Positions 2-38,085 of a DNA stretch of 64,000 bases are shown one piece after another. Source of the stretch: Candidatus Competibacteraceae bacterium. Its GTDB lineage: Bacteria; Pseudomonadota; Gammaproteobacteria; Competibacterales; Competibacteraceae. The notes beneath the pieces are model-generated. The model did not search any database, had not been told where the DNA came from, and worked only from the letters and a program-made list of their open reading frames with translations. How positions within the stretch are numbered: the first letter of the stretch is position 1; the number at the start of each line of letters is the position of its first letter. Where the stretch lies: assembly GCA_027492875.1 (NCBI GenBank), contig JAPUDV010000063.1, forward strand, positions 1-64,000, written 5' to 3'. Made by a program: the position numbers and the translations under genes.

Positions 2-820
2 AAACCGGAGTCAGGGAAGATATGCCCCTCAATTGATTTATGCACCAACGCCTCTCCATTCATAAATCAGCTCACCTTTCCGAAATGGTTGCTGAACTTT
101 CTAATACTTCCACAGGGTTTCTATATGTATTGGGCTTATGGGTCCCTAGTAATTCCCCAAACGTGGTCGCTGGGGCTAGAAATGACCTTCTATTTAGTTA
201 TCCCATGGATACTCATATATTTATCAAAACCGCAGATTTATGCTTTGGCTTGTGCGTCTTTCGGAGTTTTCTTAGCAGCATATCTTGGTAAGATTAATTC
301 AGACTATTTTGGCTACCGACTTCTTTTAGGGACATTCTTTATGTTTATTGTTGGCTGGTCATTTTTTCAAAATGATAGCGACTCAAGAAAATTTAGAGCT
401 ATTGTATTCTTATTGGCAGGTTCTTTACTGCTAGTTACATTTTTTAATAAATCTCTTTATAATCTGCCATACAACAAAGAGGTTTTAGTCGGATTGATGG
501 CTGGTATTTTAGTTGCTAATCTTGTTAAATATTTCAGTTTTTCAAGTCTAGATGAGTTTTTTGGGAATCTAAGTTATGGAGTATTTCTCAATCACTTTAT
601 TATTATTTGGCTTATGCAAAAAATCCTCGCAGTTCAAATATTTGACATCCTAAATATCGTGATACTCTTAATATCCTCCTGTACGCTGGCCTTGGGTTCG
701 TTTCTTTTTATTGAGCGCCCTGCTTTGAGATGGAGGCATACCATAAGAAGTGGAATTATGCATAGAAAGCCTAACCCGACTGTCAATACGGACGCTGCGC
801 AAAGCTGTTCAGGCCGCTGA
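2..820 (+). CDS. Acyltransferase-3 family membrane protein, 5' end outside window
   Basis: The reading frame is open from the left edge, so the gene starts upstream and only the 3' part is seen. An internal TTG at 89 would be an artificial start. The family (OafA/YrhL type) O-acylates surface sugars or lipids in the inner membrane. The segment QTWSLGLEMTFYLVIPW matches the family's conserved QTWSL-(x)-E-xxFYL motif, and several hydrophobic helices follow, ending in the usual FIERPALRWR tail. The last 25 or so residues (HRKPNPTVNTDAAQ...) do not look like the family and may come from inserted repeat sequence. The gene is markedly AT-rich compared with everything after 1.5 kb, which suggests horizontal acquisition. 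Confidence 0.8.
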   Translation, partial: KPESGKICPSIDLCTNASPFINQLTFPKWLLNFLILPQGFYMYWAYGSLVIPQTWSLGLEMTFYLVIPWILIYLSKPQIYALACASFGVFLAAYLGKINSDYFGYRLLLGTFFMFIVGWSFFQNDSDSRKFRAIVFLLAGSLLLVTFFNKSLYNLPYNKEVLVGLMAGILVANLVKYFSFSSLDEFFGNLSYGVFLNHFIIIWLMQKILAVQIFDILNIVILLISSCTLALGSFLFIERPALRWRHTIRSGIMHRKPNPTVNTDAAQSCSGR

Positions 821-893: not shown

Positions 894-1051
894 ATGAACG
901 ATAGCGCGAGGTATCTGAAAATTGTTGAATGGTCAGATGAGGATCAATGTTTTATTGGTCAATGCCCAGGAATTATTGGACCATGTTGCCATGGTGAAGA
1001 CGAGAAGAAAGTATATTCTGATCTCATTGTACAGGACAAAATCCGCTAACC
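894..1051 (+). pseudogene. HicB-like antitoxin, C-terminally truncated
   Basis: The frame codes for 51 residues starting MNDSARYLKIVEWSDEDQCF and continuing IGQCPGIIGPCCHGEDEKKVY. This is the beta-strand start of the partial RNase-H-like HicB antitoxin fold. Full proteins are usually 70-130 residues. The family-like sequence stops at about residue 44, exactly where a 26-bp repeat begins at 1025, and that repeat supplies the last residues and the TAA. The ATG overlaps the TGA (895-897) of a preceding short frame ending QEREVEQKIEEAKQ, which may be the tail of a former partner gene. No HicA toxin is visible. It is likely a remnant; the family call is from recalled motifs. Confidence 0.55.
1025..1050 (+). 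repeat. 26-bp direct repeat, copy 1
   Basis: This copy is identical over 26 bases to the one at 1209-1234, starts CATTGTACAGG and ends ATCCGCTAAC. It begins exactly where the HicB-like frame loses similarity to its family. It could be the end sequence of a small mobile element. Confidence 0.9.
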
Positions 1052-1520: not shown

Positions 1521-2078
1521 ATGAAGTCATATTCGGTATATCTCGTGGCGAATAGCGATATCGACGCGATTCGTAGCCTGTTCCGCTTGGTCGAGACGAT
1601 TGACGGCACGCCGTGGGTACGATGCGGCTTTGAGAAAGATGCAGAACCTCCGGACGATGAGGTGCTTGCTGGCGAGGAGTCGCTGGCACGAGACTACTCG
1701 GCACAACTCGGCGAGGTCGTGTTTGTCTATGGCGATACGTCCGTCGATGGCTTTGTCTACGAACACGCCCGCGACGGTGAAATTCTGCGAAAGCTCGTAT
1801 GGTTCCCGGCGCCACCTGACGGTACGCCCCGTTGGATGTGTGCGGACGGGGAGCCGGAGGCGTGGGAAAAGAAGCTCTATGATCCCGCTCGACTGGAATG
1901 GTTTCTCAACCTCGAGCGCGAGCGATACGGCGACGAAGGCCGGGCCGACGACTTCGGGGCCTACGAACGGCAGGTAAAATCCGAATGGGGATCGGGTCGG
2001 ATTCTCGAAGGGCGTTTATATCCGGACTGTGACGGTACGGTCGCGCAACTTGTCGAACGTCATTACGGTATTGGATAG
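1521..2078 (+). CDS. Conserved protein of unknown function, possible integron cassette gene
   Basis: This is a 185-residue soluble acidic protein with a very strong ribosome binding site (GGAGGTGAATCA before ATG). It has no signal peptide and no membrane segment. The core VVFVYGDTSVDGFVYEHARD, a later LVWFPAPP-x-GTPRWMCADGEPEAWE and a closing YPDCDGTVAQLVERHYGI look conserved, and I recall similar unnamed proteins in diverse bacteria. No function can be assigned. An attC-like inverted repeat begins about 18 bp after its stop, the layout of an integron gene cassette. It sits alone between mobile-element debris and the next gene. Confidence 0.85.
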   Translation: MKSYSVYLVANSDIDAIRSLFRLVETIDGTPWVRCGFEKDAEPPDDEVLAGEESLARDYSAQLGEVVFVYGDTSVDGFVYEHARDGEILRKLVWFPAPPDGTPRWMCADGEPEAWEKKLYDPARLEWFLNLERERYGDEGRADDFGAYERQVKSEWGSGRILEGRLYPDCDGTVAQLVERHYGIG

Positions 2079-2096: not shown

Positions 2097-2189
2097 GCCC
2101 AACCAGCGGTTACCCCAGAGCCGGCGCAGCGGAGAATCCATCGGTCATCCGATGCCATCGCGCCGGCTCGGTGAATCTGATCGTTAGCA
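2097..2189 (+). repeat. attC-like folded recombination site
   Basis: The site starts with GCCCAAC (2097-2103), which fits the attC core RYYYAAC, and ends with GTTAGCA (2183-2189), close to GTTRRRY with mismatches in the last bases. Between them a perfect 10-bp inverted repeat (2118-2127 with 2160-2169) encloses a perfect 6-bp hairpin (2139-2144 with 2149-2154, loop TCAT). Total length of 93 bp is within the normal attC range. It lies directly after the stop of the 185-residue protein, as in a gene cassette. No integrase is in the window. Confidence 0.5.
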
Positions 2190-2270
2190 ACTACAAATAC
2201 AAGGGAGTGGGGATGAGGCTTATTGACCGCATTTTTTTTTGGGCCGCTACACGATATCGAGGAAGCGACC

Positions 2271-2768
2271 ATGACCCAGAATCAACGGCAGTCCGAGATC
2301 GAAAGCAACGCATCTTTCGGACCGATCGAGTTGAACTACTACCCGATCCCTCCAGGTGGCGACTGGTTCGCCAAATGGCTACCCGGCTATCCAGCCCCTC
2401 CACGAGGCTACAAGATTCATGTTTCGGTCTTTCCCGAAGATGCCGAGATCGTGGCGCGCAGTGTGCTGCCCGCCTTGCGCCGGTTGCGGGTCGCCCACAA
2501 GGTAGTCAGAAATCGGGAGCGTTACCGGATGCAGCTCGCCACCTCACAGCAAGGCAAGTTCATCACGATCTACACCCAGGATTCGGCCCAAGCGCAAGAG
2601 GTGCTGAACGCGATCAACCCGGAGCTTCAGCAGCTCCGGCAATTCGGCGGGATCAGACCGGGACCCGCGCCCACAACCCGCGAAAGCGGTCATGCCGAAA
2701 CGGAAATCCCGGTGGGTGGCAGCGGGTTTGTTTGGTCCCGCTGGTACGAGGAAGGCGACCAGGATTGA
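2271..2768 (+). CDS. Orphan protein resembling LanKC N-terminal lyase domain
   Basis: The 165-residue protein starts at an ATG behind GAGGAAGCGACC; an in-frame ATG at 2223 lacks a good site. Residues 46-52 (GYKIHVS) and 95-101 (GKFITIY), with the region RVAHKVVRNRERYR between them, resemble the N-terminal phosphoserine/threonine lyase domain of class III/IV lanthipeptide synthetases, which has OspF-like character. The C-terminal GGSGFVWSRWYE resembles that domain's closing strand. The kinase and cyclase domains are missing and no precursor peptide is obvious. A standalone lyase-like protein or a related carbohydrate/peptide tailoring protein is possible. The assignment comes from recalled motifs. 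Confidence 0.6.
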   Translation: MTQNQRQSEIESNASFGPIELNYYPIPPGGDWFAKWLPGYPAPPRGYKIHVSVFPEDAEIVARSVLPALRRLRVAHKVVRNRERYRMQLATSQQGKFITIYTQDSAQAQEVLNAINPELQQLRQFGGIRPGPAPTTRESGHAETEIPVGGSGFVWSRWYEEGDQD

Positions 2769-4719: not shown

Positions 4720-6510
4720 TCAGAATTGCTCTTCGGTCAGCGCCATGATGGAAATGCCGCCGTTCTGGATCGAGCGCAGCAGCGCGCCCGCCTTGGGCAG
4801 TACGTGTTCGACGTAAAAGCGGGCGGTGACCAGCTTGGCTTCGTGGAACAGCGAATCCTCGCCGGTCATCAGCTTGTTCTGGGCCACCCGCGCGGCGCGG
4901 GCCATCTGCCAGCCGCCGCAGACGGTGCCGACCAACATCATATAGTCCACAGACACCGCCATCGCGTGGCTGGGGTCGCCGCTGGTCAGCATCTGCTCGG
5001 TGGCTTCGGCCAGCGCCCGCACGCCGTCGCGCAGCCCGTCGCGGATCACCGCCATGTCGTCGCCGGGGATCGGACCCAGCGCCTCGGCGGTGGCTTCGAT
5101 CTCGGCGATCAGGGTCCGCATCGCGGCGCCCTGGTCCGCGCTCAGCTTGCGGCCAGCCAGGTCGGCGGCCTGGATGCCGGTGGTGCCTTCGTAGATGGTG
5201 GTGATGCGGGAGTCGCGCAGGTGCTGGCAGGCGCCGGCTTCCTCGACGTAACCCATGCCGCCGTGGACCTGTAGCCCCAGCGAGGCGATTTCGATGCCGA
5301 TCTCGGTGCACCAGCCCTTGACCACTGGAATCAGAAGGTCCACCCGGGTCTGATGGGTCTGGCGCACCGCCGGGTCGGGATGGTGGCGGGCCAGATCCAT
5401 GTGCATGGCGACCCCGTAGGCCAGGGCGCGCATCGCCTCGTTCTGCGCCTTCATGGTCATCAGCATCCGCCGCACGTCGGGGTGGTGGATGATGGTGACC
5501 CGGTCGCCGCTCTTGATGCCGGCGGGCCGGCCCTGTACCCGGTCCTTGGCGTATTCGCGGGCGGCCTGATAGGCCCGCTCCGCGATGGCCAGCCCCTGCA
5601 GGCCAACCTTGAAGCGGGCCTCGTTCATCATGATGAACATGTAGGCCAGGCCCTTGTTCTCCTCGCCGACCAGATAGCCGATCGCGCCGTCCCGGTCGCC
5701 GAAGGCCATCACGCAGGTCGGGCTGGCGTGAATGCCCAGCTTGTGTTCGATCGACACCGCATGGACGTCGTTGCGCGCCCCCAGCGAGCTGTCCGGGTTG
5801 ACCAGAAACTTGGGCACCAGGAACAGCGAGATGCCCTTGACCCCCTCCGGCGCGTCCGGGGTGCGGGCGAGCACCAGATGGATGGTGTTCCCGGTCATGT
5901 CGTGCTCGCCCCAGGTGATGAAGATCTTCTGGCCGAAGATCCGGTAATGATCGCCGTGGGGAACGGCGCGGGTCCGCACCGCCGACAGGTCGGAGCCGGC
6001 CTGCGATTCGGTCAGGTTCATGGTGCCGGTCCACTCGCCGCCGACCATTTTCGGCAGGTACCGCGCCCGCAGTTCAGCGGACCCGGCGCGGCTGATGGCC
6101 TCGATCGCGCCAGCGTTGAGCATCGGGCACAGCGCGAAGGACATGTTGGCCGAATTCCACATTTCCTGGGTGGCGGTGTTGAACAGCTCCGGCAGACCTT
6201 GGCCGCCGTGTTCCGCCGGGCTGCCGATGCCGTTCCAGCCGCCTTCGATGAAGCTTCGGTACGCCCCGGCAAAGCCGTCGGCGGGAATGACCCCCCCGGC
6301 GCCGATCCGGGCGCCCTGAATATCACCTGACTTGTTGAGCGGCGCCAGCACCTCGGCGGCCAGCTTGGCGGCTTCCTCCAGCACGGCTTCCAATAGATCC
6401 GGGCCGACTTCCTGCTCGGCGAAAGCGGGGAGGGCGGCGATTTCGGAGAGACCGGCCAGCTCGTTGATGACAAACTGCATGTCGCGGATCGGGGCGAAAT
6501 AGGCGGTCAT
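4720..6510 (-). CDS. Acyl-CoA dehydrogenase, large AidB/DmdC-type
   Basis: This 596-residue FAD enzyme oxidises an acyl-CoA thioester to the 2-enoyl-CoA and passes electrons to ETF. It is longer than the classical 380-residue family and has the extended C-terminal region of DmdC-like members. Visible motifs are LTESQAGSDLSAVRT, the FAD-domain segment WGEHDMTGNTIHLVLART, and VHGGMGYVEEAGACQHLRDS followed by ITTIYEGTTGIQA. It is the last gene of an etfB-etfA-dehydrogenase run, so its electron acceptor is encoded with it. The substrate (straight-chain acyl-CoA or methylthiopropanoyl-CoA) cannot be told from sequence alone. Confidence 0.88.
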   Translation of the reverse strand: MTAYFAPIRDMQFVINELAGLSEIAALPAFAEQEVGPDLLEAVLEEAAKLAAEVLAPLNKSGDIQGARIGAGGVIPADGFAGAYRSFIEGGWNGIGSPAEHGGQGLPELFNTATQEMWNSANMSFALCPMLNAGAIEAISRAGSAELRARYLPKMVGGEWTGTMNLTESQAGSDLSAVRTRAVPHGDHYRIFGQKIFITWGEHDMTGNTIHLVLARTPDAPEGVKGISLFLVPKFLVNPDSSLGARNDVHAVSIEHKLGIHASPTCVMAFGDRDGAIGYLVGEENKGLAYMFIMMNEARFKVGLQGLAIAERAYQAAREYAKDRVQGRPAGIKSGDRVTIIHHPDVRRMLMTMKAQNEAMRALAYGVAMHMDLARHHPDPAVRQTHQTRVDLLIPVVKGWCTEIGIEIASLGLQVHGGMGYVEEAGACQHLRDSRITTIYEGTTGIQAADLAGRKLSADQGAAMRTLIAEIEATAEALGPIPGDDMAVIRDGLRDGVRALAEATEQMLTSGDPSHAMAVSVDYMMLVGTVCGGWQMARAARVAQNKLMTGEDSLFHEAKLVTARFYVEHVLPKAGALLRSIQNGGISIMALTEEQF

Positions 6511-7587: not shown

Positions 7588-8337
7588 TTAGATGACGTGG
7601 GCTTCGTTGTGCAGCTTGTCCACCAGTTCGGCGACGCTGCCGACCTTGATGCCGGCCTGGCGCTTGGGCGGTTCCTGCACCTTCAGGGTGGTCAGCCGCG
7701 GCGCGACGTCCACGCCCAGATCGGCCGGCTTGAGCACCTCTAGCGGCTTTTTCTTGGCTTTCATGATGTTGGGCAGCTTGACGAAGCGCGGCTCGTTCAG
7801 GCGCAGGTCGGTGGTGACCAGGGCGGGCAGTTTCAGGGCCACCGTTTCCAAGCCACCGTCGACCTCGCGGGTGACCTCGACCGTCCCGTCGCCGAGCGCG
7901 ACCTTGGACGCGAAGGTGCCCTGTGGCCAGCCGAGCAGCGCCGCCAGCATCTGGCCGGTCTGGTTGGCGTCGTCGTCGATGGCCTGCTTGCCGAGAATGA
8001 CCAACTCCGGCTTTTCCTTCTCGACCACGGCCTTGAGCAGCTTGGCCACCGCCAGCGGTTGCAGTTCGGCGTCGGTTTCCACCAGGATGCCGCGGTCGGC
8101 GCCCATCGCCAGCGCGGTGCGGATGGTGTCCTGGCAGGCGGCGACGCCTAGCGAGACCGCCACGATTTCCTGGGCTTTTCCGGTTTCCTGCAGGCGAACC
8201 GCTTCTTCCACGGCGATTTCATCGAACGGGTTCATCGACATCTTGACGTTGGCGGTTTCGACGCCGGTACCGTCCGCTTTCGCTCGTACCTTGACGTTGT
8301 AGTCAACGACCCGCTTTACGGCGACTAGAATCTTCAT
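7588..8337 (-). CDS. etfB: Electron transfer flavoprotein beta subunit
   Basis: The 249-residue AMP-binding partner of EtfA begins [18 protein letters not shown] and contains [39 protein letters not shown] and the ETF-beta signature region [20 protein letters not shown]. The start is supported by AAGG nine bases upstream. It is first in the etfB-etfA-acyl-CoA dehydrogenase series. Confidence 0.97.
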
Positions 8338-9216: not shown

Positions 9217-11895
<2,679 letters not shown>

Positions 11896-21291: not shown

Positions 21292-22956
21292 ATGGAAAAA
21301 ATCTGGCTGCGGGAGTATCCGGAAGGAGTGCCGGCCGAAATCGACCTGAACGAGTTTGCATCCCTGAAAGATATTCTGGAAAAAAGCTGTCGGCGTTTCG
21401 CCGATTTGCCGGCCTATTCCAACATGGGCGCGACCCTGCGCTATCGGGACATCGACCGGTTCAGCCGCGATTTCGGCGCTTATCTGCAAGGGCTAGGGCT
21501 GGGCAAGGGCGAGCGGGTCGCCATCATGATGCCCAACGTCCTGCAATATCCGATCGCCTTGTTCGGTGCGTTGCGGGCCGGCCTGACGGTGGTCAACGTC
21601 AACCCGTTGTATACGCCGCGCGAGCTGGAGCATCAGCTCAAGGACTCCGGCGCGGCCGCCATCGTCATCATTGAGAATTTCGCCCACACCTTGCAGGAGG
21701 TGCTGAGCAGGACGCCGATCAAGACTGTCGTCACCACTCAGTTGGGCGATCTGCTCCCGTTCCCCAAGCGCACGCTGGTCAATTTCGTGGTCAAGCACGT
21801 CAGGAAAATGGTGCCGGCCTGGCGCATTCCAGGCGCCGTGCCGTTCCGACGGGCGCTGGCGCGGGGCGCGGGGCAAACCCTGGGGGACGTGCCGCTGGGG
21901 CATGAGGATCTGGCGTTCCTGCAATACACCGGCGGCACCACCGGCGTATCCAAGGGCGCGATGCTGACCCACGGCAATCTGGTGGCGAACCTTCAACAGG
22001 CCTCGGCTTGGCTCAGCCCCTGCTCCAGGCCGGCCGAGGAGACCATCATCACCGCCCTGCCGCTGTATCACATTTTTTCGTTGACCGCCAACTGCCTGAC
22101 TTTCATGAAGGTGGGCGGTCACAATATTCTGATCACCAACCCCCGCGACATGCCGGGTTTCGTCAAGGAGTTGGGCAAGATCCGATTTACCGCCATCACC
22201 GGCGTGAACACGCTGTTTAACGGCCTGTTGAACGCCCCCGGCTTCGAGCAGCTCGATTTCGGCGCGCTCAAGATCAGCCTGGGCGGCGGCATGGCGGTGC
22301 AGCGGGCGGTGGCGGAAAATTGGAAGCGGGTGACCGGCACGCCGCTGATCGAGGCCTACGGCCTGACCGAAACCTCGCCGGCGGCCTGTATCAACCCGCT
22401 GACGCTCGGTGAATACAACGGCAGCATCGGCCTGCCGATTCCGTCCACCGAACTGTCGGTGCGCGACGACGAGGGCCGCGAGCTGGGCATCGGCGCGGAT
22501 CAGGTCGGCGAGATTTGCATCCACGGCCCGCAGGTGATGCACGGGTACTGGAACCGGCCCGAAGAGACCGCCAAGGTCATGACCCCCGACGGTTATCTTC
22601 GTACCGGCGACTTGGGCTATGTCGACGAGCGCGGCTACGCCCGGATCGTGGACCGCAAGAAGGACATGATCCTGGTGTCCGGGTTCAACGTCTATCCCAA
22701 CGAGGTCGAGGACGTGGTCGCCTTGCATCCGGGCGTGCTGGAATCTGCTGCGGTCGGCGTGCCGGACGAGAAGTCGGGCGAGGCGGTCAGGATCGTGGTG
22801 GTGGCCAAGGATCCGGCGCTGACCGCCGAGGCTTTGATCGAACACTGCCGCCAGCACCTGACCAGCTACAAGGTGCCGCGGCAGGTCGAGTTCCGCGCCG
22901 AACTGCCCAAGACCAACGTCGGCAAAATCCTGCGGCGGCTGCTGCGGGAGGGATAG
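21292..22956 (+). CDS. fadD: Long-chain fatty acid-CoA ligase
   Basis: The 554-residue AMP-forming ligase activates free fatty acids with ATP and CoA at the inner membrane. The ATP motif is [19 protein letters not shown], the AMP motif YGLTETSPA, and the C-terminal fatty-acyl signature [20 protein letters not shown] then [18 protein letters not shown]. The start is the ATG after AGAGGAGAACCCA. It diverges from a TetR regulator and would feed acyl-CoA both to beta-oxidation and to the acyl reductase/wax synthase encoded just upstream. Confidence 0.95.
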
Positions 22957-36960: not shown

Positions 36961-38085
36961 ATGACCTGTGATTTCCTCTCCCTCGCCGCCCCCGGCGTGC
37001 GCACCCTGCAACCCTATCAGCCCGGCAAGCCGGAGAGTGAATTGCGGCGGGAATACGGCCTGAGCGATATCGTCAAGCTGGCCTCCAACGAGAATCCGCT
37101 CGGTCCCAGCCCCAGAGCCATGAGCGCCGTGCGGGAAGCACTCGGCCATCTGGCCCGTTATCCCGACGGTAACGGTTTCGAACTCAAGGCGGCGCTGTCC
37201 GCCAAGCTCGGCATCTCCACCTCGGCGCTGACGCTCGGCAACGGCTCCAACGACGTGCTGGAACTGGCGGCGCGAGCGTTTCTGACGCCGGAGCACGAGG
37301 CGGTGTTCTCCGAACACGCTTTCGCTGTGTATCCCATTGTTACCCAGGCCATCGGCGCGACCGCGCGCGTCGCCAAGGCCAATCCGCCCGACCATGCGAT
37401 GCCTTACGGCCACGATCCGGCGGCCCTGCTGGCGTCGATCGGTGATCGGACTCGGGTGATGTTGATCGCCAATCCCAACAATCCCACCGGCACCTGGCTG
37501 AAGGCGGCGGAACTGGAAGCCTTGCTGGAAGCCGTGCCCGCGCGGGTCATCGTGGTGGTGGATGAGGCGTATCACGAATATGTCGAAGCCGAGGCGGACT
37601 GTCCCAACGCCCTGAATTGGCTCGACCGTTTCCCCAACCTCATCGTCACCCGCACCTTCTCCAAGGCTTACGGCTTGGCCGGGCTGCGGGTCGGGTACGC
37701 GGTTTCCCATCCTCAGGTGGCCGATCTGTTGAATCGGGTGCGCCAACCGTTCAACGTCAATAGCTTGGCGTTGGTTGCGGCGGCGGCGGCGCTGGATGAT
37801 GTCGAGCACTTGGATCGCGGTCGAGCGACCAACCGTACCGGCATGAAGCAGTTACAGGATGCTTGTCGGCAATGGGGTTTGAGCTGGCTGCCATCGGCCG
37901 GCAACTTCCTGTGCGTGGATCTGAACCAGCCGGGACGGGAGGTATTCGTGGAGTTGCTGAAGCGCGGTGTCATTGCCCGTCCGGTGGACAACTACGGCTT
38001 GCCGCGCCATCTGCGGATCAGCATCGGTACCGAAGCGGAAAACGCCCGCTGGATCGAAGCCATGCACGGCATATTGCGAGGTTGA
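36961..38085 (+). CDS. hisC: Histidinol-phosphate/aromatic aminotransferase
   Basis: This is a 374-residue fold-type I PLP enzyme. The substrate-side motif LASNENPLGPSP, the Asp region NPNNPTGTW, DEAYHEYVE and the Schiff-base lysine in RTFSKAYGLAGLRVGYA are present. Located between pheA and tyrA, it probably serves tyrosine and phenylalanine transamination as well as histidine synthesis. I chose the ATG giving MTCDFLSLAAPG; an upstream in-frame start at 36892 adds 23 unrelated residues. Confidence 0.95.
   Translation: MTCDFLSLAAPGVRTLQPYQPGKPESELRREYGLSDIVKLASNENPLGPSPRAMSAVREALGHLARYPDGNGFELKAALSAKLGISTSALTLGNGSNDVLELAARAFLTPEHEAVFSEHAFAVYPIVTQAIGATARVAKANPPDHAMPYGHDPAALLASIGDRTRVMLIANPNNPTGTWLKAAELEALLEAVPARVIVVVDEAYHEYVEAEADCPNALNWLDRFPNLIVTRTFSKAYGLAGLRVGYAVSHPQVADLLNRVRQPFNVNSLALVAAAAALDDVEHLDRGRATNRTGMKQLQDACRQWGLSWLPSAGNFLCVDLNQPGREVFVELLKRGVIARPVDNYGLPRHLRISIGTEAENARWIEAMHGILRG

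What the first reader, a model, noticed from the sequence alone, without database searches (positions are those of the whole stretch)
2271..2768. Orphan LanKC-lyase-like protein without kinase or cyclase
The protein matches the look of the N-terminal lyase domain of class III/IV lanthipeptide synthetases (GYKIHVS, GKFITIY), yet the kinase and cyclase domains and a precursor gene are absent. It may be a free-standing phospho-lyase acting on another protein, like the OspF/SpvC effectors, or a scaffold that lost catalysis.
Basis: partly seen in the sequence, partly recalled or inferred. Interest (0 to 1): 0.55.

Follow-up and report, generated by a model that had tools for sequence, protein, structure and literature searches.

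The report
Free-standing phosphate-removing lyase on mobile gene
A small bacterial gene makes only the phosphate-stripping part of a peptide-antibiotic enzyme, with its key catalytic residues kept, and seems to travel as an accessory gene; it may permanently switch off phosphorylated proteins, but that activity has not been shown.

Summary
Window 2271-2768 (+) encodes a 165-aa protein that is only a RamC_N domain, the lyase domain of class III/IV lanthipeptide synthetases (59.7 bits, cut-off 27). The own genome (97.6% complete) shows no other RamC_N, no LanC and no HrcV type III marker, but 16 Hanks-kinase matches. Full-length orthologues (76-92%) occur in three other Competibacteraceae genomes; dN/dS is 0.07-0.19. 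Eight solitary relatives, this one included, were found.

The predicted fold matches the ThurKC and CuvL lyase domains (Z 15.3), then SpvC, OspF and LxmY (Z about 10). K48, H50, K77, K96 and Y101, counterparts of known catalytic residues, are invariant in 8 of 8. R157 remains in 5 of 8. The C-terminal segment with ThurKC R191 is absent; Glu145 may replace the catalytic Asp.

An attC-like site precedes the gene (21.0 bits) and the genome has an integron integrase: moderate evidence for a cassette.

Best reading: a free-standing phospho-Ser/Thr lyase acting inside its own cell. Chemistry is inferred; the target is unknown. New variant of a known kind.

The parts
2271..2768 (+). Free-standing LanKC/LanL-type phospho-Ser/Thr lyase ORF, 165 aa. 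Codons of residues discussed: K48 2412-2414, H50 2418-2420, K77 2499-2501, K96 2556-2558, Y101 2571-2573, E145 2703-2705, R157 2739-2741
   Evidence: PF25816 59.7 bits; fold; residues; selection
2259..2265 (+). Ribosome-binding-site-like GAGGAAG before the ATG
   Evidence: Read by eye; lies inside the stretch shared with L022
2237..2772 (+). Stretch of DNA shared with the orthologous locus L022 (91.8% identity); homology stops on both sides
   Evidence: blastn
2097..2189 (+). attC-like integron recombination site, 81 bp before the lyase ATG and after ORF 1521-2078
   Evidence: Model R2 21.0 bits, E 0.0015 in 12 kb; model R1 did not find it; DNA hairpin z -3.2, 1 of 200 shuffles as stable; best chance score in the other 60.9 kb is 17.7
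1521..2078 (+). Preceding ORF of 185 aa, probably another cassette; no Pfam, NCBIfam, PADLOC or PHROGs match
   Evidence: found in 3 of 39 family genomes, own included
769..814 (+). Possible degenerate attC remnant; not significant
   Evidence: 6.5 bits with R1, 10.3 bits with R2, E 0.52
9217..11895 (-). Hanks-type kinase with a C-terminal FGE-sulfatase domain; a possible source of phosphoproteins, not in the lyase's operon
   Evidence: Pkinase 130 bits, FGE-sulfatase 165.5 bits;

Best explanation
The ORF makes a free-standing phospho-Ser/Thr lyase of the LanKC/LanL lyase type. It should bind a phosphorylated Ser or Thr in a protein made by a separate kinase: K77 takes the alpha proton, K48 and Y101 hold the backbone carbonyl, H50 protonates the leaving phosphate, and K96 and R157 hold the phosphate. 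Phosphate then leaves by beta-elimination and an irreversible dehydroalanine or dehydrobutyrine remains. With no LanC or LanKC in the genome and no co-moving partner gene, it most likely acts on phosphoproteins inside its own cell, either products of the resident Hanks kinases or those of an invader, rather than making a lanthipeptide. The gene is a patchily held accessory gene that appears to have moved as an integron cassette in this genus. Shown by computation: domain, fold, retained residues, purifying selection, solitary state, patchy distribution. Inferred: catalysis, substrate and role. The cassette origin is moderately supported.
For: RamC_N only. Fold: Z 15.3 to ThurKC and CuvL, 10.2 to SpvC, 9.9 to OspF and LxmY, first unrelated row 6.9; the branch-B model behaves alike. 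K48, H50, K77, K96 and Y101 in 8 of 8 solitary proteins; the first Lys and the base are 29 residues apart in 8 of 8 solitary and 6 of 6 LanKC. Alanine changes at ThurKC K65, K94 and R163 stop modification (PMC10604976 section 9). The isolated VenL lyase domain eliminates phosphate in trans, with incomplete conversion (PMC2843593 section 11). dN/dS 0.07-0.19. No LanC, no second RamC_N, 16 kinase matches. Mobility: homology limited to the gene, attC-like sites, integrase.
Against: No activity has been measured. The segment holding ThurKC R191 (SpvC R220) is absent, since the model's last residue aligns with ThurKC 168-169. There is no clear counterpart of Asp152; E145 (7 of 8) is only a candidate. 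Branch B has Gly at R157 (3 of 8). MAFFT does not put R157 over the LanKC Arg of the RYG motif: that match rests on the V-W/Y-x-R-W/Y motif and on the aligned range. The kinase linkage is not conserved. R1 missed the attC site, no attC was found on the own integrase contig (L092), nor beside the lyase in L023, L024, L025, L026 or L032, and no attC follows the lyase.
Confidence: 0.58

Rival explanations
1. Same chemistry, different target: a cassette-borne anti-phage protein, or one delivered to competitor cells, that ruins phosphorylated proteins of a phage or rival.
For: Patchy, single-gene mobility; integrase and attC context; NADAR-domain and other accessory genes beside the L022 copy. A type VI system is present. 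That chromosomal integrons often hold phage-defence cassettes is recalled; one search showed listings only.
Against: No PADLOC or PHROGs match for the protein, no relative in viral contigs or phage records; no delivery domain in a 165-aa protein.
Confidence: 0.18
2. A phospho-Ser/Thr-binding protein that keeps the fold but has lost turnover; it reads or shields phosphosites.
For: Missing R191 segment and unclear Asp; branch B also lacks R157.
Against: The base, acid and carbonyl-binding residues are invariant in 8 of 8, which a mere binder would not need; K-to-K spacing is exact.
Confidence: 0.15
3. A split lanthipeptide-like pathway: the lyase works with a separate kinase on a precursor peptide, without a LanC cyclase. 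Khater and Mohanty report lanthipeptide-like clusters with kinase and lyase as standalone proteins, for archaeal BLES03-like proteins (PMC4159009, Discussion passage).
For: Kinases exist in the genome; a kinase ORF lies about 1.8 kb from the L015/L024 copy.
Against: No LanC; no partner gene moves with the lyase; the kinase is not conserved as a neighbour in the loci read. Small precursor genes were not searched for.
Confidence: 0.07
4. A decaying leftover of a LanKC gene.
For: Two family genomes hold damaged copies: a frame-broken one in L016 and a 3' remnant in L020.
Against: dN/dS 0.07-0.19; four intact copies; no LanKC in the genome; solitary proteins branch apart from LanKC, though only at 89/88 with long branches.
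Confidence: 0.02

Closest known systems
Lyase domain of class III lanthipeptide synthetases (ThurKC 8sap/8sam, CuvL 8car/8cav; Pfam PF25816 RamC_N)
   Same: Sequence family above cut-off; best fold match, Z 15.3 over 131-137 residues; K65/H67/K94/K117 kept as K48/H50/K77/K96
   Different: Not fused to kinase and cyclase; HK instead of FK before the base (8 of 8 against 6 of 6) and 17-18 residues (21 in L032) instead of 22 from the base to GKF; no segment with R191; no clear D152
Class IV LanL lyase domain (VenL)
   Same: VenL K51, H53 and Y108 correspond to K48, H50 and Y101 (passages of PMC2843593); NF038150 41 bits
   Different: VenL has Arg83 where this has a Lys; solitary here
OspF/SpvC/VirA phosphothreonine lyases (PF03536)
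   Same: Solitary lyases of the same fold, Z 8.8-10.2; the four SpvC residues K104, H106, K136 and Y158 have counterparts
   Different: No PF03536 match at E <= 1; 11-16% identity in the structural alignment; no HrcV in the genome; no R220 counterpart
LxmY / HopA1-type lyases of class V lanthipeptides
   Same: Separate lyase proteins of the same broad fold, Z 9.3-10.2
   Different: Longer chains (255-316 residues), 9-14% identity; LxmY acts with a partner kinase in the LxmKY complex (entry title)
BLES03-like predicted phosthreonine lyases
   Same: Predicted solitary phosphothreonine lyases outside pathogens; in archaea with separate kinases (PMC4159009 abstract, section 14 and a Discussion passage)
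   Different: P0001 matches only RamC_N in Pfam at E <= 1, so it is not of the BLES03 sequence family as far as Pfam shows

Membership tests
LanKC/LanL lyase domain family (PF25816 RamC_N) | Profile score over the curated cut-off | tested here: met
   59.7 against 27 bits, profile positions 18-115 of 191 only
LanKC/LanL lyase domain family (PF25816 RamC_N) | Lyase fold | tested here: met
   Predicted model, pLDDT 73; Z 15.3 to 8sap_B and 8car
LanKC/LanL lyase domain family (PF25816 RamC_N) | Lys65, His67, Lys94, Lys117 and the Tyr of GKFITxY | tested here: met
   K48, H50, K77, K96, Y101 in 8 of 8 solitary and 6 of 6 LanKC rows
LanKC/LanL lyase domain family (PF25816 RamC_N) | Arg163 of the RYG motif | tested here: inconclusive
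   R157 in a VWSRW motif like LanKC VYARY, 5 of 8 by motif; not in the same MAFFT column as LanKC; Gly in branch B
LanKC/LanL lyase domain family (PF25816 RamC_N) | Asp152 | tested here: inconclusive
   No Asp in the window protein; E145 in 7 of 8 falls near it; L027 has an Asp 11 residues before its Arg
LanKC/LanL lyase domain family (PF25816 RamC_N) | Arg191 in the C-terminal segment | tested here: not met
   The protein ends at ThurKC 168-169
LanKC/LanL lyase domain family (PF25816 RamC_N) | Elimination of phosphate | not testable with these tools
   Needs an enzyme assay
Class III/IV lanthionine synthetase (LanKC, LanL) | Lyase, kinase and cyclase in one chain | tested here: not met
   165 aa; NF038151 57.9 against 575 bits, NF038150 41 against 650
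OspF/SpvC effector family (PF03536) | Sequence family match | tested here: not met
   No match at E <= 1
OspF/SpvC effector family (PF03536) | Type III secretion | tested here: not met
   No HrcV match at E <= 0.001 in the own genome, 97.6% complete
OspF/SpvC effector family (PF03536) | Same fold | tested here: met
   Z 8.8-10.2
Integron gene cassette | Integron integrase in the genome | tested here: met
   G000:C23:502-1443, 490.6 bits, cut-off 265; on another contig, so no physical link shown
Integron gene cassette | attC at the boundary with the preceding cassette | tested here: inconclusive
   R2 21.0 bits at window 2097-2188 and 23.9 bits before the L022 copy; R1 missed the window site; chance reaches 17.7 in 60.9 kb
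Integron gene cassette | attC after its own stop codon | tested here: not met
   No R2 match after 2768 near the gene or after the L022 copy

The most novel reading that the evidence does not exclude
Non-pathogenic bacteria use irreversible eliminylation inside their own cells: a cassette-borne, free-standing phospho-Ser/Thr lyase permanently converts sites phosphorylated by resident Hanks kinases, or by a phage's kinase, into dehydro amino acids. It would be an endogenous counterpart of the SpvC/OspF trick and a living example of the stand-alone lyases from which LanL enzymes were proposed to have evolved (PMC2843593, abstract passage).
Probability: 0.4. Interest if true: 0.78.

Novelty: new variant of a known kind. 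Interest (0 to 1): 0.52.

Why it matters
Phospho-Ser/Thr lyases are known as parts of lanthipeptide synthetases and as injected effectors of pathogens, and have been predicted for BLES03-like proteins (PMC4159009). Goto et al. proposed that LanL enzymes arose from stand-alone kinases, lyases and cyclases (PMC2843593, abstract passage); natural stand-alone lyases of the LanL sequence type outside pathogens would make that testable. An enzyme that erases phosphorylation irreversibly would also be an unusual way to end Ser/Thr kinase signalling in bacteria, and the dehydro amino acids it leaves could be looked for by mass spectrometry. At 153-169 aa the solitary proteins are smaller than the separate lyases listed (resolved chains of 195-316 residues), so they may show the smallest working lyase.

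Tried and rejected
Viral origin: 69 stretches matched the pattern in viral contigs, none a relative; no phage record matched. Plasmids: one match, a Streptomyces LanKC. Wider sampling: RamC_N in 3 of 369 genomes of the class, one below cut-off; alignment A2 in 1 of 398 of the phylum, the own genome. The samples are partial, so the solitary form looks rare but is not counted in full. Known defence or phage family: none for this protein.

attC work: a first scan and a loose palindrome scan gave many chance hairpins. Whole-site MAFFT was too ragged to model, so trimmed sites were used. R1 did not list the window site among 8 matches at E <= 10; R2, built from 27 array matches of R1 that include its 13 training sites, did. 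The E-value of 0.0015 is for 12 kb; for 64 kb it would be about 0.008. In one search no site at E <= 1 fell in L087, L089, L092 (the own integrase contig) or L094. A text pattern for R''...L'...R' matched twice in the window, at 2097 (+) and at 37734 (-). A second-best R2 hit, 22289-22362 at 17.7 bits, lies in a coding region that looks like an acyl-CoA ligase and is taken as chance.

Kinase linkage: of the lyase loci read, only L015/L024 has a kinase gene within about 2 kb. A tree of 17 lyase domains puts the solitary proteins together at 89/88 with a long-branch warning, too weak to settle their origin.

Papers: 16 papers hold both 'phosphothreonine lyase' and 'integron'; their listed titles are on enteric or plant pathogens, Salmonella above all, or type III secretion. 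Four hold Competibacter and integron. None holds any of the five terms. Searches were read as listings. Rows left out of the 8-protein counts: the broken copies in L016 and L020, and the larger or fused relatives L021, L029, L030 and L033; the last two have lost the K-x-H motif.

Full report
What is there. Window 2271-2768 (+) is a 165-aa ORF with a ribosome-binding-like GAGGAAG before its ATG. Pfam gives one family, RamC_N (PF25816), 59.7 bits against a cut-off of 27, over residues 29-122. NCBIfam sees only the first part of LanKC and LanL, at 57.9 and 41 bits against cut-offs of 575 and 650. Of 14 PDB sequences at E <= 10, twelve are synthetase-length or named LanKC/SalKC chains, the best at E 6.9e-5; two are unrelated. 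In the own genome (3.83 Mb, 97.6% complete) RamC_N has this single match, LANC_like none, Pkinase 16 matches of which 13 are over the cut-off and two of these share a frame, HrcV none, and the type VI component TssC one match over and one under the cut-off.

It is a real, selected gene. A protein search of 59 genomes found 7 with a match, own included: full-length orthologues in G002 (92% identity), G028 (76%) and G024 (78%), a distant homologue in G029, and damaged copies in G022 (frame broken) and G003 (26 residues of the 3' end); G002 also holds a second, distant copy. With alignment A1, 6 of 39 family genomes match. dN/dS over the six pairs of the four intact close copies is 0.07-0.19. The genome-collection scan gave 16 loci. 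With the window protein this makes eight: four close orthologues of 165-166 aa, branch B (L025, L026, L032; 153-164 aa from the chosen starts) and L027 (169 aa). The other nine are six LanKC-like loci (four confirmed with RamC_N, kinase-type and LANC_like matches; L036 by length only; L034's ORF is 326 aa as it stands), two lyase-kinase ORFs without LANC_like at E <= 0.1 (L030 Poribacteria, L033 Chitinophaga) and a 3199-aa archaeal ORF, L029.

Fold. AlphaFold2 with an 8-row alignment gave pLDDT 73 and pTM 0.73; residues 1-39 are mostly under 50. Foldseek's first 13 rows are LanKC-type chains, then OspF, VirA, SpvC, a P. syringae effector and LxmKY. VIA-align gives Z 15.3 to ThurKC 8sap_B (3.2 A, 137 residues) and CuvL 8car (2.3 A, 131), 10.2 to SpvC-type 2z8o_A (3.3 A, 128), 9.9 to OspF 3i0u_A and LxmY 9dk2_B, and 6.9 to the first unrelated row. 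A model of the branch-B protein L026 (pLDDT 70) gives 15.4 to 8sap_B, 10.0 to 2z8o_A and 7.3 to the first unrelated row.

Catalytic residues. ThurKC residues K65, H67, K94, K108, K117, D152, R163 and R191 are closely conserved, and K65A, R163A and K94A block modification (PMC10604976 section 9). SpvC K104, H106, K136 and Y158 correspond to VenL K51, H53, R83 and Y108; the SpvC Lys136 is the base and His106 the acid (passages of PMC2843593). The solitary proteins keep K48, H50, K77, K96 and Y101 in 8 of 8, as do 6 of 6 LanKC rows; the first Lys and the base are 29 residues apart in all 14. R157 lies in VWSRW, like LanKC VYARY: the motif is found in 5 of 8 solitary and, by the same text pattern, in 4 of 6 LanKC proteins, the other two having RYG with another spelling. 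MAFFT sets R157 a column or two away from the LanKC Arg, so this equivalence is by motif and by the structural range, not by column. Missing are the C-terminal segment with R191, since the protein ends at ThurKC 168-169, and a clear D152; E145 (7 of 8) is a candidate, L027 having an Asp near that place. R137 (6 of 8) is a possible extra phosphate ligand. Two marks set the solitary proteins apart from LanKC: HK instead of FK at the base (8 of 8 against 6 of 6), and 17-18 residues (21 in L032) instead of 22 from the base to GKF. In ThurKC that loop holds K108, faces the kinase domain, and is absent in SpvC and OspF (passages of PMC10604976), so the shorter loop fits a lyase without a fused kinase.

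Mobility. Window DNA is homologous to L022 only from 2237 to 2772 and to L023 only from 2271 to 2770; the window, L022 and the L023/L024 pair, which share one context, lie at three different places. The neighbour ORF 1521-2078 occurs in 3 of 39 family genomes, and the other two lack the lyase. Integron integrase TIGR02249 is over the cut-off in 18 of 39 family genomes, among them all 4 with an intact close orthologue, but not G029 (branch B only). attC sites in arrays beside integrases were modelled: R1 from 13 trimmed sites gave 27 matches at E <= 0.01 in six loci, from which R2 was built. R1 did not score the window site. R2 scores window 2097-2188 (+) at 21.0 bits, the next in 12 kb being 11.6; in the other 60.9 kb the best is 17.7. 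Before the L022 copy R2 finds sites at 6293-6397 (31.2 bits) and 7681-7795 (23.9 bits), the latter 205 bp before the lyase and in its orientation, and in L020 one at 6183-6240 (19.8); L023, L024, L025, L026, L032 and L016 have none above 13.1. So the cassette reading is supported for this genus, not for the others, and the lyase's own 3' attC is not seen. The fold of the window site has z -3.2 as DNA.

How it most likely works. A lyase fold, an intact base, acid and carbonyl-binding pair, one sure and one likely phosphate ligand, selection on the protein, and the VenL result that an isolated lyase domain works on peptide phosphorylated by a separate domain (PMC2843593 section 11) make beta-elimination of phosphate from pSer/pThr the likeliest function. 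The lack of LanC and of a conserved partner argues against a lanthipeptide, though standalone kinase and lyase clusters have been reported for archaeal BLES03-like proteins (PMC4159009, Discussion passage). The lack of HrcV argues against an SpvC-like injected effector. Own phosphoproteins are the likeliest target given the kinases present; defence is a real alternative. Catalysis, target and role are inference.

Known or new. Khater and Mohanty found SpvC-like lyases only in pathogenic bacteria, VenL-like domains in several bacterial classes, and predicted the activity for BLES03-like proteins (PMC4159009: abstract, sections 10 and 14, one Discussion passage). I saw no solitary VenL-like protein described in those parts; the supplementary lists were not seen. 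Passages of PMC7268733 speak of standalone elimination-domain proteins of class I, a different family. The searches listed no paper whose title or abstract start names such a protein. I rate it a new variant of a known kind.

Noticed in passing
L029:138-9737 (Diapherotrites archaeon AUK171): A 3199-aa ORF, coiled-coil-like by eye, carries a RamC_N domain (67.3 bits) in its last third.
   Followed up: no
L030:2134-3459 (Poribacteria) and L033:7947-9362 (Chitinophaga arvensicola): RamC_N fused to a kinase domain without LANC_like in the ORF; the K-x-H motif is lost in both.
   Followed up: partly
   Followed up: no
window 1025-1050 and 1209-1234: A perfect 26-nt direct repeat, possibly ends of a small mobile element.
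   Followed up: no
Competibacteraceae genomes: Integron integrases are over the cut-off in 18 of 39 genomes, with attC arrays beside several of them; only four papers in the library hold both words Competibacter and integron.
   Followed up: partly
L020:2437-7791 and L022:2600-8500: Accessory genes and attC-like sites lie between two genes that look like parts of the tryptophan pathway (names by eye); one of them in L022 is a NADAR-domain gene (180.4 bits).
   Followed up: partly
L025 (as L017:5322-9399): The branch-B lyase gene lies antisense between genes that look like a type I secretion ABC transporter and its membrane fusion protein (by eye).
   Followed up: no
window 9217-11895 (-): A Hanks-type kinase fused to an FGE-sulfatase domain.
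   Followed up: no
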